Positions 20,773 to 60,885 of a stretch of DNA of 64,000 nucleotides are shown here, one piece after another. Position 1 is the first letter of the stretch. The number at the start of each line of letters is the position of its first letter. Source of the stretch: Corynebacterium incognita (GTDB taxonomy: Bacteria > Actinomycetota > Actinomycetes > Mycobacteriales > Mycobacteriaceae). The stretch lies in assembly GCF_014217255.1 (NCBI RefSeq), contig NZ_CP059404.1:1240001-1304000 (forward strand), read 5' to 3'. A program made the position numbers and the translations under genes. The notes under the pieces were generated by a model. The model had not been told where the DNA came from. It searched no databases and saw only the letters and a program-made list of their open reading frames with translations.

Positions 20773-20849
20773 GGGCCTATAGCTCAGTCGGTTAGAGCGC
20801 ATCGCTGATAACGATGAGGTCGCTGGTTCGATTCCAGCTAGGCCCACCA
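20773..20849 (+). tRNA. tRNA-Ile (anticodon GAT)
   Basis: Full cloverleaf: acceptor gggccta pairs with taggccc, anticodon loop ctgataa gives GAT, T-arm ggttcgattcc. The CCA end is encoded (20847-20849). Classic Ile-Ala tRNA pair downstream of gyrA in corynebacteria. Confidence 0.97.
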
Positions 20850-20858
20850 GGAACGAAT

Positions 20859-20931
20859 GGGGCATTAGCTCAATTGGTAGAGCATCTGCTTTGCAAGCAG
20901 AAGGTCAGGAGTTCGATTCTCCTATGCTCCA
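20859..20931 (+). tRNA. tRNA-Ala (anticodon TGC), copy 1
   Basis: Acceptor ggggcat pairs with atgctcc (one G-U), anticodon loop tttgcaa gives TGC, T-arm ggagttcgattctcc. CCA is not encoded. It is 9 bases after tRNA-Ile and is identical over the whole gene to the copy at 24227. Confidence 0.97.
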
Positions 20932-20937
20932 CAGGTA

Positions 20938-55823: not shown

Positions 55824-57380
55824 TTAGGGCTGAAGGTTGGGACCAAGGGTCCGACCGGGGTGAAGGCGTTGGGACAACTCTTCATCGTGGGTGACAAAGA
55901 GCAGCGCCCCGCGCCAGTGATGCAGCGCCGTGGACAGGGCCTCCACGCCATCGATGTCGAGGTGGTTGGTCGGCTCGTCCAGAATGAGCAGACTTGGCAT
56001 CGGGGAGCGGAACGTCGCGTGCGCTAGGGCTAAGCGTAGACGCTCACCACCGGAGAGCGCTGCGATGGGCTTCTGGGCATCGTCGCCAATAAAGAGCAGC
56101 CGTGCTGCGTGTGCGTGCGCGGCGGAGGGGTCGGCACCCGGGCGGGCGTCGCGAATGTGTTCAATGACCGTGGCGTGGGAGTTGGGGAAGGCGATGTCCT
56201 GCTCCACGGCGGCGTAGGGGACGCAGATGGCACCGGAATCGCGCAGCGCTCGCAGGAGCGTGGACTTGCCGGAGCCGTTCGGCCCGGCGATGCGAACCCG
56301 CTCCGGGCCAACGAGTTGGAGGCGTGCGGTGTCGACGTAATCGAGTACCACGCGTCCGGCGGGCAGGTGCGGGTCAGGCAGCTCGAGGCGGAGGAGTTCG
56401 TCTTTGCGGATGGCGGAGTCGGTGGCGGCTACCTGGGCGGCGGCCTGGTCGACGGCGGCGTCATGCAGCCGGTGTTGCTTGCCGGCTGTAGTCTCCGCGG
56501 ATTGCTTGCGCAGTCCCGCGACCAGTGGAGGGAACTTCTTATTGCGCTGATCGCGCTGCCCCGCCTTGGCGTTGCGCGCAGCGGCGATCTGTGCGGCCTG
56601 CCGCTGTGCCTTCTGGGTCTTCAGCTCATTGCGGGCGGTGGCGTGGGCTTGGAGCGCCGCGTGTTGCTCGGCGGCGATGGCGTCGCGGTAGTGACTGTAC
56701 GGCCCACCAAAGTGGCGGATGTGCCCGTGGTGGAGTTCGTAGATCGAATCCATCAGTTCGAGGAACTCGAGGTCGTGGCTGATGGCAAATACGCAGCGCC
56801 CGCCGCTGGCATAGCTGGTCAGGGCGTCGAAAAGCCAGGCTCGTGCGGACTGGTCCAGGTTGGAGGTGGGCTCGTCCAGCAGTAACACCTGCGGCCGGGC
56901 GCGCAGTTGCGCGAGCACGGCAATGGCGGTGCGCTCCCCGCCGGATAAGGTGCGCAAGGGCCTATCGACGTCGTCAGGCACACCCGCCCGCGCGAGCGCG
57001 GCGCGGGTGGTGTCGAGGACGTCCCAGTTGTCGCCGACCGTGTCGAAATCAGCAGCAGTGCCGATTCCCGCCTCGATGCGGGCAAGGGCGTCGCGGATGT
57101 CGGTGATGCCGAGCGTATCGGAGATGGTTATCGCCGCGACGGCGGCAGGAAACTGCGGGAGGTAGCCCACCTCTCCGGCGGTGATGGTGCCCCCGGTGGG
57201 GCGCAACAAGCCCGCGATAAGTGTGAAGAGCGTGGACTTGCCCGCGCCATTGGCACCGACCAGGGCATGCAGTCCCGGAGGCACGGTGAAGCTCAAGTCA
57301 TTGAACAGATTGGGCCCGGCAGGGAAGGCCCACGTCAGTGAAGCAACGGTCAACGAGGGCTTTGCTGAGGAACTAGGCAA
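55824..57380 (-). CDS. ABC-F family ATP-binding protein
   Basis: 518 aa with two ATPase domains and no membrane segment, so a cytosolic ABC-F protein acting on the ribosome rather than a transporter. First Walker A GANGAGKST (42-50), signature LSGGERTA and LLLDEPTSNLD; second Walker A AGPNGSGKST, LSGGERLR and LILDEPTNHLD. Basic linker KTQKAQRQAAQIAAARNAK between them. Some members protect ribosomes from antibiotics. TTG 57380 with agga six bases earlier. The 5' leader contains a short peptide ORF that can mask this ribosome-binding site. Confidence 0.9.
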   Translation of the reverse strand: MPSSSAKPSLTVASLTWAFPAGPNLFNDLSFTVPPGLHALVGANGAGKSTLFTLIAGLLRPTGGTITAGEVGYLPQFPAAVAAITISDTLGITDIRDALARIEAGIGTAADFDTVGDNWDVLDTTRAALARAGVPDDVDRPLRTLSGGERTAIAVLAQLRARPQVLLLDEPTSNLDQSARAWLFDALTSYASGGRCVFAISHDLEFLELMDSIYELHHGHIRHFGGPYSHYRDAIAAEQHAALQAHATARNELKTQKAQRQAAQIAAARNAKAGQRDQRNKKFPPLVAGLRKQSAETTAGKQHRLHDAAVDQAAAQVAATDSAIRKDELLRLELPDPHLPAGRVVLDYVDTARLQLVGPERVRIAGPNGSGKSTLLRALRDSGAICVPYAAVEQDIAFPNSHATVIEHIRDARPGADPSAAHAHAARLLFIGDDAQKPIAALSGGERLRLALAHATFRSPMPSLLILDEPTNHLDIDGVEALSTALHHWRGALLFVTHDEELSQRLHPGRTLGPNLQP

Positions 57381-57384
57381 GAGG

Positions 57385-57454
57385 GATCTCCTAAAGCAAT
57401 AGAAAGCGAAGGTGGCGGCTAACTATTGGGAGATCTTCACTGGCGTAACCCCTT
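57385..57454 (-). promoter_or_regulatory. Leader-peptide translational attenuator of the ABC-F gene
   Basis: On the minus strand a leader ORF, GTG AAG ATC TCC CAA TAG (57440-57423), codes MKISQ and has AAGGGG (57454-57449) 8 bases upstream. Its bases gatctcc-caatag (57435-57423) pair with ctattg (57402-57397) and ggagatc (57391-57385), 13 bp with one 5-base bulge and a 20-base loop. GGAG of the ABC-F ribosome-binding site is in the stem. A ribosome on the leader would free it. A -10-like TATAAA is at 57482-57477. Confidence 0.65.
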
Positions 57455-57499
57455 GATGTTGAAGCGGAATGCTGGTTTTATATTAGTGGTTTTTGCTGG

Positions 57500-58198
57500 T
57501 TATAGCAATAGATTTTTGCCGTGGCGTGCCCCGCCGAGCACAGCGATGGCGATGTGGACGCGGTTGCTGCCGCCGATTTTGTGAAGAATGTTTTTCACGT
57601 GGGTTTTGACGGTGGTCGTGGAGATGAACAGGCTTTCCGCGATGGCGGTGTTATCGAGGCCTTGCGCGATGAGCTGGGCGATCTCGCGTTCGCGGGGGCT
57701 CAAATAGGCGAGTTGGTCCGGCTGAATTCTGTCCGTTGCCGGCGTGGTCGGCGCGTCTTGCCTAGCGGGATCCACAGGCCGGGCGAGTGCCAACAGATTG
57801 GACACTACGTCGGGGCTGAGCATCTGCTGGCCCGCGGCAGCAGCGCGGATAGCGGAGACGAGGGCCTCCGGGCCCGTGGACTTGAGGAGGAAACCCACCG
57901 CGCCGGCGCGCAACGCGTCCACGATGAAGGTGTCGGTATCAAAAGCCGTCAACATGATGATCGGGAGATCCTTGTCAATCGTGTGCAGGGCCGCGGTGGC
58001 CGCAATCCCGTCCATGACGGGCATGCGGATATCCATGAGCACAATATCGGGACGCGCCCGGGAGATGACTTCCACGGCGTCTTTGCCATTGCTAGCTTCC
58101 GCTACGACGGTGACATCGTCGGTACCGTCCAGGATGATTTTAATACCTTTACGCAGGGCTTCTTCGTCGTCGACGAGCGCGACTGTCAGTGGGGTCAT
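57500..58198 (-). CDS. NarL/LuxR-type response regulator
   Basis: 232 aa from ATG 58198 (gaaggaaaa upstream). Receiver: LVDDEE, Asp56 in VLMDIRMPVMDG, LTAFD, FLLKST. DNA-binding HTH near the end: LSPREREIAQLIAQGLDNTAIAE, TVKTHVKNILHKIG. Pair of the kinase gene, whose stop overlaps its start (ATGA). Downstream lies the ABC-F gene, possibly also read from this operon, although a separate promoter seems to overlap the end of this gene. Confidence 0.94.
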   Translation of the reverse strand: MTPLTVALVDDEEALRKGIKIILDGTDDVTVVAEASNGKDAVEVISRARPDIVLMDIRMPVMDGIAATAALHTIDKDLPIIMLTAFDTDTFIVDALRAGAVGFLLKSTGPEALVSAIRAAAAGQQMLSPDVVSNLLALARPVDPARQDAPTTPATDRIQPDQLAYLSPREREIAQLIAQGLDNTAIAESLFISTTTVKTHVKNILHKIGGSNRVHIAIAVLGGARHGKNLLL

Positions 58199-59466
58199 TT
58201 TTCCTTCTTCATCGTGTGGGTGGGCAGGGTCAACGTCCAAGAAAAGTCCGTGGCGGAGGAATCCACGGTGAAGTCTGCGCCGACGAGGCGGGCGCGTTCG
58301 TCCAAGCCAATGAGTCCGTAGCCACCGCTTGGCGACGCCGTGTCTTGTGCCGGCATGCGGTTACTCATGGTGACGGTGAGCCCACCTGGTCGCGTGGCGA
58401 CGTCGATAATGATCTTCGTTCCCGGGGCGTGTTTGCGCGCGTTGGTGAGTCCCTCCTGGACGGCGTAACCCAACGTGTGGACCAGGATCGTGGGCAGGGC
58501 GTCAAGTGTGTCGGCGGTGGCAGGGTCGTCAAAACGCAATGCGACACGGGCCCCGGATGCGCGGGCGCGGTCCACGAGATCGTAGAGGGTGGCGCGGGGA
58601 TCCACGCGGTCGTCGAAACGCAGGGTCTGCAGGACTGAGCGCAGATCCTGCACCGCTTGTTCCGCCTCCTCCTGAATGGTGGCCGCGGACTGCTGGATAG
58701 TTGTTGGGTCCAGGGTGGTGTTGTACTTGAGGCCGCCGGCATAGACGGAGATGAGGCTGAGCCGGTGGGAGAGAGAATCGTGCATGTTGCGGGCGATGTT
58801 GTCCCGTTCTTCCTGCCGGGCTTGATCCTGCAGGCGAGTGATGTCTTCTTGAGCGCGCTGTGCCTGCGCGAGGAGTTTTGACTGCCTTTCCCGGCGGTTG
58901 GCGCGAGCGAGTCCGAAGACGAGCCCGGGAAGAATGAAAACGCTCCACAGCAGCAGTAATGCCGCGGTGGCTGGTCCGGGCATGTCGAAGAATGAAGGCT
59001 CATAAAGGCGCACCAGGAGGGATGTAGTGAGCACCAAAGTTCCGGTGAAGGACCACCTCAGGCTGCCTCGGGAGGTTAAGGAAATAAAGACGATAGCCAG
59101 GCTTAGTCGCAGGGGGTTGAGCCCGGCGGTGGCCAGATATGCCACCGCCGCGATGAGCGTGGCGGGCGAGCCGGGGTAAGACTGTGCGGGATCGTATTCG
59201 CGCGGCACGTGCCGCAGCGCCAGCGGGAGCACCAGCCAGCTTCCCAGGGTGGCAAGGACGATGATCGCGATGGCGGTGAGGATGGGATCGGTCCATTCCT
59301 CGTTTACTGAGGCGCGGTCGGCGGCAACAAAGTGGTAGATCAAAGCGGCACTATCGCCCACAATGGCAGCAGTGAGCAGAAAGACTCGCTTGTAGGCGGA
59401 GTGGCCATGGCGGTCGTTTATCTCCGCACGCAGGGTATGCCGCTTCCACCACCGTCGAATAACCAT
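58195..59466 (-). CDS. Sensor histidine kinase, HisKA_3 type
   Basis: 423 aa. N-terminal membrane domain with about six helices (25-185), then a coiled coil rich in Gln/Arg (SKLLAQAQRAQEDITRLQDQARQEERDNIARN) and phospho-His229 in MHDSLSHRLSLI. The ATPase end has GLTNARKHAPGTKIIIDV and GYGLIGLDERARLVGA. ATG 59466, divergent from the gene at 59554. Forms a two-component system with the next gene. The layout (kinase-regulator-ABC-F) suggests response to a ribosome- or membrane-active compound; inferred only. Confidence 0.93.
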   Translation of the reverse strand: MVIRRWWKRHTLRAEINDRHGHSAYKRVFLLTAAIVGDSAALIYHFVAADRASVNEEWTDPILTAIAIIVLATLGSWLVLPLALRHVPREYDPAQSYPGSPATLIAAVAYLATAGLNPLRLSLAIVFISLTSRGSLRWSFTGTLVLTTSLLVRLYEPSFFDMPGPATAALLLLWSVFILPGLVFGLARANRRERQSKLLAQAQRAQEDITRLQDQARQEERDNIARNMHDSLSHRLSLISVYAGGLKYNTTLDPTTIQQSAATIQEEAEQAVQDLRSVLQTLRFDDRVDPRATLYDLVDRARASGARVALRFDDPATADTLDALPTILVHTLGYAVQEGLTNARKHAPGTKIIIDVATRPGGLTVTMSNRMPAQDTASPSGGYGLIGLDERARLVGADFTVDSSATDFSWTLTLPTHTMKKEK

Positions 59467-59553
59467 GCCTTCTACGTTAGCCAGAACCTGTCTGTGAGAA
59501 ATCCTCCCCAGGGAGGAAGAGCCGCGGCACGGATCTTTCTAGTTTTAGGTGCC

Positions 59554-60051
59554 ATGGATGTTCAAGATACGCAGATACAGAAGAAGACCGCAGCGCTGGT
59601 CGCTCTCGCCGCACTGGTACTCGGCGGCGTTGTCGCCACGAGTGAGGCGATGCCAGAACGCACGCCGCAACAGCGCGGGAGCAGTGATGTGCATTTCAAA
59701 GGCTTGTCGATCCCTGGGAAGCAGTGTTCAGAAGGCCCCGGGTTTACGGCGGACGCACCGAAATGGAAGTGCGGGGACACGTCCGTGCGGAGTAATTCAG
59801 GCACGGTGAAAGAAGACGCCGATCTAGCCATGGTCGTTGCCCGTCAGCATCGGTTTTTCCGCGGTGACTCTGAGCTCCCAGTTGCGCTGGCCAAAGAACG
59901 CAGCTCGGGACTGTGGGTGCTTGACGACGGCGAACGCGTGACCGTGGCCGCGCGGAAAGCTGGAGCAGGGAACGCCACCGTGTGTGGGCTGCACTTTGAC
60001 GGGCCGCACTCCCGCGCCCTGGCAGACAACGTGGTGAAGGAGGACAAGTAG
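59554..60051 (+). CDS. Membrane-anchored or secreted protein paired with PrsW
   Basis: 165 aa from ATG 59554; the open frame before it is not coding. A membrane helix or signal sequence (KKTAALVALAALVLGGVVA, residues 9-27) is followed by an outer domain with cysteines in KQCSEGPGF, PKWKCGDTS and ATVCGLHF. No known family. Its stop (60049-60051) is followed at once by the PrsW ATG. This linkage suggests that it is a substrate or partner of that protease. A T-rich tagtttt about 10 bases before the ATG could make the mRNA nearly leaderless. Confidence 0.65.
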   Translation: MDVQDTQIQKKTAALVALAALVLGGVVATSEAMPERTPQQRGSSDVHFKGLSIPGKQCSEGPGFTADAPKWKCGDTSVRSNSGTVKEDADLAMVVARQHRFFRGDSELPVALAKERSSGLWVLDDGERVTVAARKAGAGNATVCGLHFDGPHSRALADNVVKEDK

Positions 60052-60885
60052 ATGCGACAGGTACATGTCTCCTTTCTGCGTTGGGGATTCGTCATACTGT
60101 TGGCTGCGGGACTCGTGGTGACAACCCGAAGCCTTATCAACGATCCCCGTACCGCGGTGGGCATGACGTTTTCAGTGGGACTCGCCGTCATCGTGCTGGC
60201 ATTGACGTGGCTGTTGTTACGCCGCCACCCGGCGTTGCCTCAGGGATCACGCTGGGTGCCCATTGGGTTGGGGCTGGCGTGGGGCCTAGCGTGCTCGGGT
60301 CCTGCGGTGTTTTTTAACACGGCCGCGTCGAAAATCTTGGACAAGGTGGACCTGTACTGGCTGGAAGCAGCCGCGTACTCTCCCGTGAACGAGGAGACGC
60401 TCAAAGTAGTCGGTGTGGCGCTCATCTGCGCGGGCTTTGTTAAGCTTCACCGCGCCATTGAGGCTGTGCCTATCGGTATTGCGGTGGGCGTGGGATTTAC
60501 CGCCGGTGAAAACCCGCATTTTATCGCTGACCGCGTCATCAAGGACCTGGACAGCGATGTTATCGGCGCGGTAAGCGCCACAGTGATCCGTATTCTCACT
60601 GGTCCGTTTGGGCATTCGGTCTACACTGGGTTGGCCGCCTTCGGCGTAGGGGTGTTGGTGTGCCGTACCGGTGCGCTCCGCAGCGTCCTGGGGTGGTGGT
60701 TTCTGGCGTTCGCTGTGCACACGGCGGGTAACCTTGCCTCGACGCTGGCCGGCATCGCCCCAGACGACGGCGTCCTGTGGATTATCTTTGGCAGGGTAAT
60801 AGTGGGGTGGGTTCTAGCAGTATGGCTTTACTTGCGCAGTCGTAAGCTCGGTGCCCGCCCCGCTGAGCGGAACCACTCACTGTGA
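60052..60885 (+). CDS. PrsW-family intramembrane metalloprotease
   Basis: 277 aa, eight or so membrane helices. PrsW hallmarks: EExxK-type PVNEETLKVVGV (Glu114, Glu115), GVGFTAGENPHF (Glu153), GPFGHSVYTG (His188) and AVHTAGN (His223). PrsW in Bacillus cuts the anti-sigma factor RsiW; the actinobacterial targets are unknown. The ATG is on the base after the preceding stop, so the two genes are translationally coupled. DUF4126 gene follows 12 bases later. Confidence 0.88.
   Translation: MRQVHVSFLRWGFVILLAAGLVVTTRSLINDPRTAVGMTFSVGLAVIVLALTWLLLRRHPALPQGSRWVPIGLGLAWGLACSGPAVFFNTAASKILDKVDLYWLEAAAYSPVNEETLKVVGVALICAGFVKLHRAIEAVPIGIAVGVGFTAGENPHFIADRVIKDLDSDVIGAVSATVIRILTGPFGHSVYTGLAAFGVGVLVCRTGALRSVLGWWFLAFAVHTAGNLASTLAGIAPDDGVLWIIFGRVIVGWVLAVWLYLRSRKLGARPAERNHSL

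What the first reader, a model, noticed from the sequence alone, without database searches (positions are those of the whole stretch)
57380..57499. Leader-peptide translational attenuator in front of an ABC-F gene
Seen: a 5-codon ORF (MKISQ, 57440-57423 minus) with its own AAGGGG at ideal spacing. Its sequence gatctcc-caatag is the complement, with one 5-base bulge, of ctattg-cttta-ggagatc, which contains the ABC-F ribosome-binding site six bases before the TTG start. Known: erm and some ABC-F resistance genes are induced when an antibiotic stalls the ribosome on a leader ORF and frees the masked site. Inference: this gene is induced by a ribosome-targeting drug. The leader is very short, and the adjacent two-component system adds a second control layer.
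Basis: partly seen in the sequence, partly recalled or inferred. Interest (0 to 1): 0.82.

Follow-up and report, generated by a model that had tools for sequence, protein, structure and literature searches.

The report
Short-leader attenuator of a ribosome-protection gene
A five-codon decoy gene sits in front of a likely antibiotic-protection gene and its RNA folds over that gene's ribosome-binding site, so a drug-stalled ribosome should switch the gene on; many distant relatives keep the same arrangement with quite different sequences, which suggests that evolution has maintained it.

Summary
In detail: GTG-AAG-ATC-TCC-CAA-TAG (57440-57423, minus) has its own AAGGGG, and its codons form 13 base pairs, with one 5-nt bulge, with the ABC-F ribosome-binding site (-18 kcal/mol, z -3.5). 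Alone this is weak: 4 of 320 genes sampled from this genome, this one included, reach as many uORF:RBS pairs. Comparison decides it. In 95 of 98 rows (the window and 97 relatives, 36-52% identical proteins) a 3-17-codon leader could be assigned. Over 46 dissimilar representatives leaders pair better with their own RBS than with others' (0 of 20000 permutations; shuffled and shifted controls far weaker). A ribosome on the uORF start lowers the modelled cost of opening the RBS in 44 of 46. The gene groups with Dietzia genes, in a wider clade that contains genes with the published TiaA leader. Best reading: a translational attenuator induced by start-codon-stalling drugs (lincosamides, streptogramin A, pleuromutilins) rather than macrolides. 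The neighbouring two-component system is not a conserved partner. Side result: in two clades (30 of 30 rows) the uORF looks leaderless. A new member of a known kind; drug induction untested.

The parts
57423..57440 (-). uORF (leader), GTG AAG ATC TCC CAA TAG, peptide MKISQ
   Evidence: leaders of 3-17 codons assigned in 95 of 98 rows
57449..57454 (-). Shine-Dalgarno of the uORF, AAGGGG, 8 nt before GTG
   Evidence: anti-SD duplex -7.4 kcal/mol
57423..57435 (-). 5' arm of the masking hairpin, inside the uORF
57385..57402 (-). 3' arm (CTATTG + 5-nt bulge + GGAGATC), holds the ABC-F Shine-Dalgarno 57392-57388
55824..57380 (-). ABC-F ATPase gene, TTG start, 518 aa
   Evidence: two ABC_tran stretches; NCBIfam NF000355 286 bits, below its cut-off 380; tree
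57480..57508 (-). weak candidate promoter TTGCTA-17-TAATAT, overlaps the response regulator's stop codon
   Evidence: 8 of 12 consensus bases; not in the scan, which asks for 9
57500..58240 (-). NarL-type response regulator gene directly upstream (neighbour, probably not part of the switch)
   Evidence: orthologues not linked to ABC-F
58195..59466 (-). HisKA_3 sensor kinase gene (neighbour)

Best explanation
A ribosome-operated translational attenuator. Shown by sequence: a five-codon uORF with its own SD; all 13 paired bases of the 5' arm lie in the uORF and pair with the region holding the SD of the ABC-F gene; no terminator found. Inferred: with no drug, ribosomes cross the uORF in a moment and the hairpin re-forms, so the TTG-started ABC-F is made only at low level. 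A drug that freezes the ribosome at or just after the uORF start codon leaves it over the 5' arm (footprint to about +16; the arm lies at +5 to +17), the ABC-F SD is freed, and the protein, of the ribosome-protection type, is made and clears the drug. Because position matters and peptide sequence does not, the sensed drugs should be those that stop early elongation anywhere: lincosamides, streptogramin A, pleuromutilins. Likelihood: leader-operated masking about 0.85; that drug class rather than macrolides about 0.65.
For: Hairpin as stated. Family test: own leader:RBS duplex -20.4 vs -15.1 kcal/mol for swapped partners over 46 representatives, 0 of 20000 permutations reach it; double-centred effect -5.19 vs -1.62 (sd 0.36, 30 dinucleotide shuffles) and -1.39 to +0.59 for real stretches further upstream; still -3.74 vs -1.49 and -0.79 with a fixed window and no choice of uORF, -3.52 without the window's own row. 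Stall model: cost of opening the RBS falls from 11.5 to 6.7 kcal/mol in the window, mean 13.8 to 6.45, lower in 44 of 46, by 2 kcal or more in 39. Within clades start, stop and length of the uORF hold while inner codons change: ATG-AAY-(ATC/AGC/AAC/CGC/GCC)-TGA in 14 of 14 Gordonia rows; five codons GTG...AGG-TGA with codons 2-4 variable in 8 of 9 Dietzia rows (the ninth, L087, has another leader); TAA/TAG exchange in the MKI clade of 21. The gene groups with Dietzia rows (100/99) inside a clade (97/99) that also holds rows with leader MVGDDDISG/MAGDDDISG; MVGDDDISG is the tiaA leader shown to be stalled at its start codon by LSAP drugs (PMC12421871).
Against: No close relative's DNA could be read: the nearest protein (98%, P0001) is on a contig I could not fetch and the other listed ones are <=52% identical, so this exact hairpin has no direct covariation test. 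In one genome about 1% of genes show as many pairs. The simulated stall frees the window's RBS only partly (mean accessibility 0.40 to 0.50). In the Dietzia row L079 the folded stretch is no more stable than shuffles (z 0.09), and of 98 rows 13 have an MFE z-score of 0 or above. Three of 98 rows have no ATG/GTG leader that I could name. In some rows the chosen leader pairs poorly with the chosen start (L012, L013, L050), and a narrow automatic test finds no uORF:RBS pairs in 39 of 98; I attribute many of these to longer leaders or pairing just behind the stop codon, which that test excludes. The protein is below NCBIfam's cut-off for a ribosomal-protection ABC-F.
Confidence: 0.82

Rival explanations
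1. Macrolide-type arrest leader (ErmCL/MsrDL-like): the nascent MKISQ peptide itself stalls the ribosome with a macrolide.
For: Same overall anatomy as erm leaders; msrD, another ABC-F gene, is regulated in response to macrolides (PMC10314930, search listing and abstract start only; that its leader is short is recalled).
Against: Leader peptides have nothing in common between clades (MKISQ, MLDPR, MNI, MLS, MLIRRVFA) while the RNA pairing persists, so the selected thing seems to be RNA and ribosome position. The tiaA/are5sc uORFs were not stalled by erythromycin (PMC12421871).
Confidence: 0.1
2. A plain RBS-masking hairpin (for example temperature- or coupling-controlled) in which the uORF plays no part and is a chance ORF.
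For: Short ATG/GTG ORFs are common in such leaders (many loci list unrelated ones); 4 of 320 genes show similar pairing.
Against: Start, stop and length of the uORF are kept within clades while inner codons vary; most uORFs have either a good SD or a -10 box at the leaderless distance; the tiaA leader is translated and drug-stalled in vitro (PMC12421871).
Confidence: 0.07
3. Control mainly by the adjacent two-component system (read-through from the kinase/regulator operon or binding of the regulator).
For: Same strand, 59 nt between the regulator's stop codon and the uORF start; no strong own promoter found.
Against: The kinase has matches in 45 of 242 Corynebacterium genomes, own included; of the 20 loci fetched, 19 are from other genomes and show no such ABC-F in the about 4 kb held; a PrsW-like gene lies divergent from the kinase in 10 of the 20, the window's included.
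Confidence: 0.12
4. Chance complementarity with no regulatory role in this genome, for example a horizontally acquired gene whose attenuator has decayed.
For: Long branch of the window protein (0.91, 0.84); TTG start; about 1% background rate.
Against: 13 pairs confined to the uORF and the RBS region, good uORF SD, ORF intact, z -3.5.
Confidence: 0.08

Closest known systems
tiaA and are5sc leaders of Streptomyces coelicolor (ARE5 ABC-F; PMC12421871, passages read)
   Same: Very short uORF (MVGDDDISG; MLV) before an ABC-F gene; stall at the uORF start codon; for tiaA only the translational fusion was regulated. Relatives with the MVGDDDISG/MAGDDDISG leader fall in the same wider clade as the window gene.
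   Different: Different leader sequence and length; in the window the uORF itself is the masking arm, starting 60 nt before the gene, with no terminator found; the tiaA/are5sc 5'UTRs are 194 and 232 nt with predicted terminator/anti-terminator forms.
cplR leader uORF(MRI), Clostridioides difficile (PMC10201436, passages read)
   Same: Three-codon uORF; translational attenuation by SD masking found sufficient to suppress expression without drug.
   Different: Also has an intrinsic terminator; ARE1 protein; other phylum.
vmlR leader uORF(MIN), Bacillus subtilis (PMC9226507, passages read)
   Same: Tripeptide uORF needed for lincomycin induction; toeprint 16 nt past the A of AUG; an SD-masking hairpin SL-4.
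   Different: Transcription termination is a main layer; uORF (SL-1) and SD-masking stem (SL-4) are separate elements.
lmrC attenuator, Streptomyces lincolnensis (PMC8546547, passages read)
   Same: ARE5 ABC-F induced by lincosamide, streptogramin A and pleuromutilin through ribosome-mediated attenuation.
   Different: Transcriptional, premature terminator; in a biosynthesis cluster.
ermC leader (ErmCL), described in PMC10219788 (passage read)
   Same: Translational unmasking of an SD by a stalled ribosome.
   Different: Erythromycin-inducible, depends on the nascent peptide (recalled); here the peptide is 5 residues and not conserved across clades.

Membership tests
Ribosome-mediated translational attenuator | Translatable uORF with initiation signal upstream of the gene | tested here: met
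   GTG...TAG with AAGGGG, anti-SD duplex -7.4 kcal/mol; translation itself not shown
Ribosome-mediated translational attenuator | Gene's SD masked by a stem that a ribosome on the uORF would open | tested here: met
   prediction only; co-varying arms in the family
Ribosome-mediated translational attenuator | No intrinsic terminator in the leader | tested here: met
   (simple consensus scan): none on the minus strand between 57500 and 57380
Ribosome-mediated translational attenuator | Drug-dependent stalling and induction | not testable with these tools
   needs toeprinting and a reporter
ARE5 / TiaA-like ABC-F | Groups with ARE5 proteins in a tree | tested here: inconclusive
   same wider clade (97/99) as rows with the TiaA leader, but no reference LmrC, TiaA or Are5sc sequence was available, so the label rests on the leader
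ARE5 / TiaA-like ABC-F | TiaA-type leader MVGDDDISG | tested here: not met
   leader is MKISQ
ARE5 / TiaA-like ABC-F | Protects against lincosamide, streptogramin A or pleuromutilin | not testable with these tools
   needs susceptibility data
NCBIfam NF000355 ribosomal protection-like ABC-F | Score over the curated cut-off 380 bits | tested here: not met
   286.1 bits, residues 26-506
ErmCL-type macrolide arrest leader | Conserved arrest peptide | tested here: not met
   5 codons; no shared peptide across clades

The most novel reading that the evidence does not exclude
One attenuator design in Mycobacteriales ABC-F genes has evolved freely in leader sequence while the leader:RBS complementarity is kept by coupled change, and it exists in two initiation modes: SD-led uORFs (window, Dietzia, Gordonia) and leaderless uORFs, where the -10 box sits 6-9 nt before the uORF start so that the mRNA begins with the 3-5-codon sensor itself (Corynebacterium MKI clade 21 of 21, Tsukamurella MLS clade 9 of 9). 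A drug-stalled 70S on the 5'-terminal start codon would then be the switch.
Probability: 0.6. Interest if true: 0.68.

Novelty: new member of a known kind. Interest (0 to 1): 0.5.

Why it matters
It explains how a possibly acquired ABC-F gene in Corynebacterium can stay silent until a ribosome drug arrives, and predicts which drugs induce it. At family level it indicates that the selected feature is RNA complementarity and ribosome position, not leader peptide sequence, which is what a start-codon-stalling sensor predicts. The leaderless versions offer a minimal setting to ask how drugs act on leaderless initiation.

Tried and rejected
Genome-contig scan with the ABC-F protein: 13 remote loci (Collinsella etc.), of no use. 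Plasmid scan: 51 records, all <60% identical; three fetched (one Tsukamurella, two Streptomyces). Control genomes for NF000355 include no Streptomyces. Rfam: only four tRNAs in the window at gathering thresholds. PDB sequence search: general ABC-Fs only, no subfamily call. Structure prediction and fold search were not run: the ABC-F assignment is clear from sequence. MFE z-scores of the 98 rows (mean -1.70; 85 below 0, 35 below -2) were kept as weak support only, since rows are related. The raw presence of a short ORF upstream was rejected as evidence, because unrelated ones are common.

Rows and choices: 110 rows were oriented; 12 paralogous or remote ones were dropped, leaving 98: the window's own row and 97 relatives. 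Of the 87 genomes matching, 34 are among these rows (30 loci from that call, 4 more). Leaders were picked by me from the candidate list by position and likeness within clades; one search repeats the pairing test without that choice (95 of 98 rows with enough upstream DNA, 45 representatives). They are inferences.

Full report
What is there. On the minus strand, 59 nt behind the stop codon of a NarL-type response regulator, lies GTG AAG ATC TCC CAA TAG (57440-57423), preceded by AAGGGG (57454-57449). Twenty bases after its stop codon begins CTATTG-CTTTA-GGAGATC (57402-57385), which carries the SD of a 518-aa ABC-F gene starting at TTG 57380. All 5'-arm bases are uORF bases. The simple scan finds no terminator in the leader, and there is only a weak promoter candidate, TTGCTA-17-TAATAT.

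Is it more than chance? From this genome alone, barely: among 320 ORFs of at least 150 aa in 400 kb of other stretches plus the window, 36 had some uORF:RBS pairing and 4, including this one, had 13 or more pairs.

Relatives. The nearest protein is 98% identical but nameless and without accessible DNA; the other listed ones are at most 52% identical. At E<=1e-80, 57 of 242 genomes of the genus (Corynebacterium by inference, see Tried and rejected), the own one included, carry such a protein. I looked at the upstream DNA of 98 rows, the window's own and 97 relatives. A leader of 3-17 codons could be assigned in 95: MKI[F/R/H/S][S/A], eight-codon and some longer leaders in Corynebacterium, MN-x in Gordonia, MLS in Tsukamurella, mostly five-codon leaders ending in R in Dietzia, MAGDDDISG further out. 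Within clades the start, the stop and the length are mostly fixed while inner codons differ. Leader types largely follow the protein tree.

Co-variation. Taking the leader (uORF plus up to 20 nt) and the RBS segment from 46 dissimilar representatives, leaders bind their own RBS better than the others' (-20.4 vs -15.1 kcal/mol; 0 of 20000 permutations). Base composition explains only part of it: dinucleotide-shuffled leaders give -1.62 (sd 0.36) against -5.19 for the real ones on a double-centred scale, and real stretches 60-400 nt further up give -1.39 to +0.59. With a fixed window and no choice of uORF the effect is -3.74 against -1.49 and -0.79 for shifted windows, and -3.52 without the window's own row. 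Not every row agrees: L012, L013 and L050 pair poorly, and in the Dietzia row L079 overall stability equals that of shuffles. The representatives are still related by descent, so the permutation count is not a strict probability.

Mechanism. Blocking the footprint of a ribosome with the uORF start codon in its P site (to +16, as in the vmlR toeprint, PMC9226507) lowers the cost of opening the RBS from 13.8 to 6.45 kcal/mol on average, in 44 of 46 rows; in the window from 11.5 to 6.7. A ribosome anywhere on a 5-codon ORF covers most of the arm, so the switch would read how long the uORF is occupied. That fits drugs which freeze ribosomes at initiation or the first peptide bonds. [quoted passage not shown] the authors note that a strong RBS in their transcriptional reporter may have interfered (PMC12421871, passages read). 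Genes carrying that leader or its close variant (L151, L152, L008, L010, L012) fall in the same wider clade as the window gene (97/99); the window gene itself groups with Dietzia rows (100/99). The step from this to 'the window gene is induced by these drugs' is inference.

The two-component system. The kinase has matches in 45 of 242 Corynebacterium genomes, own included. In all 20 loci fetched (the window's own included) a response regulator follows the kinase, and a PrsW-like gene lies divergent from it in 10 of the 20; in the window that neighbour is at 60052-60885. None of the 19 other loci shows this kind of ABC-F in the about 4 kb held; 17 of the 20 have another gene, convergent, behind the regulator, which has no match in the window. 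So the ABC-F was probably inserted behind a pre-existing TCS. Read-through transcription remains possible.

Leaderless uORFs (side finding). In 33 of 95 rows a TANNNT hexamer ends 6-9 nt before the uORF start, against 141 of 11598 other ATG/GTG triplets in the same loci and 0 of 95 ABC-F starts; it is 21 of 21 in the MKI clade and 9 of 9 in the MLS clade. The anti-SD duplex of those 30 rows has a median of -3.0 kcal/mol (range -7.3 to +1.4) against -8.8 in the other 65. The rows within a clade are related, so this is a small number of independent events. A third of C. glutamicum mRNAs are leaderless (PMC3890552, passages read). I found no description of leaderless uORF sensors for ABC-F genes, nor of ABC-F leaders in Corynebacterium, Dietzia, Gordonia or Tsukamurella, in the searches (mostly titles and abstract starts; no preprints are held, and the supplements of PMC12421871, which list leader conservation, were not read).

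Verdict. Observation confirmed; interpretation right in kind, to be narrowed in drug class and stripped of the TCS layer. A new member of a known kind, with an apparently unreported leaderless variant in its relatives.

Noticed in passing
L009, L015, L033-L039, L069-L071, L095, L096, L098, L100, L102, L106, L108-L111 and others (uORF starts): A -10-like TANNNT lies 6-9 nt before the uORF start in whole clades (MKI 21 of 21, MLS 9 of 9), suggesting that the uORF is leaderless.
   Followed up: partly
window 57500-60885 and L131-L149: Conserved kinase/regulator pair, in 10 of 20 fetched loci divergent from a PrsW-like gene; in the window an ABC-F follows the regulator where 17 of 20 loci have a convergent small gene.
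   Followed up: partly
window 43122 (minus) and L171 4460: A 392-aa ORF with the same upstream uORF (MWQQ) and the same folding energy occurs at both places, so probably a repeated gene, perhaps a mobile element.
   Followed up: no
L006, upstream of the ABC-F: No ATG/GTG leader found, but a TTG-started three-codon ORF (TTG AAG CAC TGA) beside sequence complementary to the RBS region.
   Followed up: no
L151 3004-6468: Two ABC-F genes in tandem on a Streptomyces plasmid, the first with the exact TiaA leader.
   Followed up: no
window 20773-20932: tRNA-Ile/tRNA-Ala pair without any rRNA match in the window at gathering thresholds.
   Followed up: no
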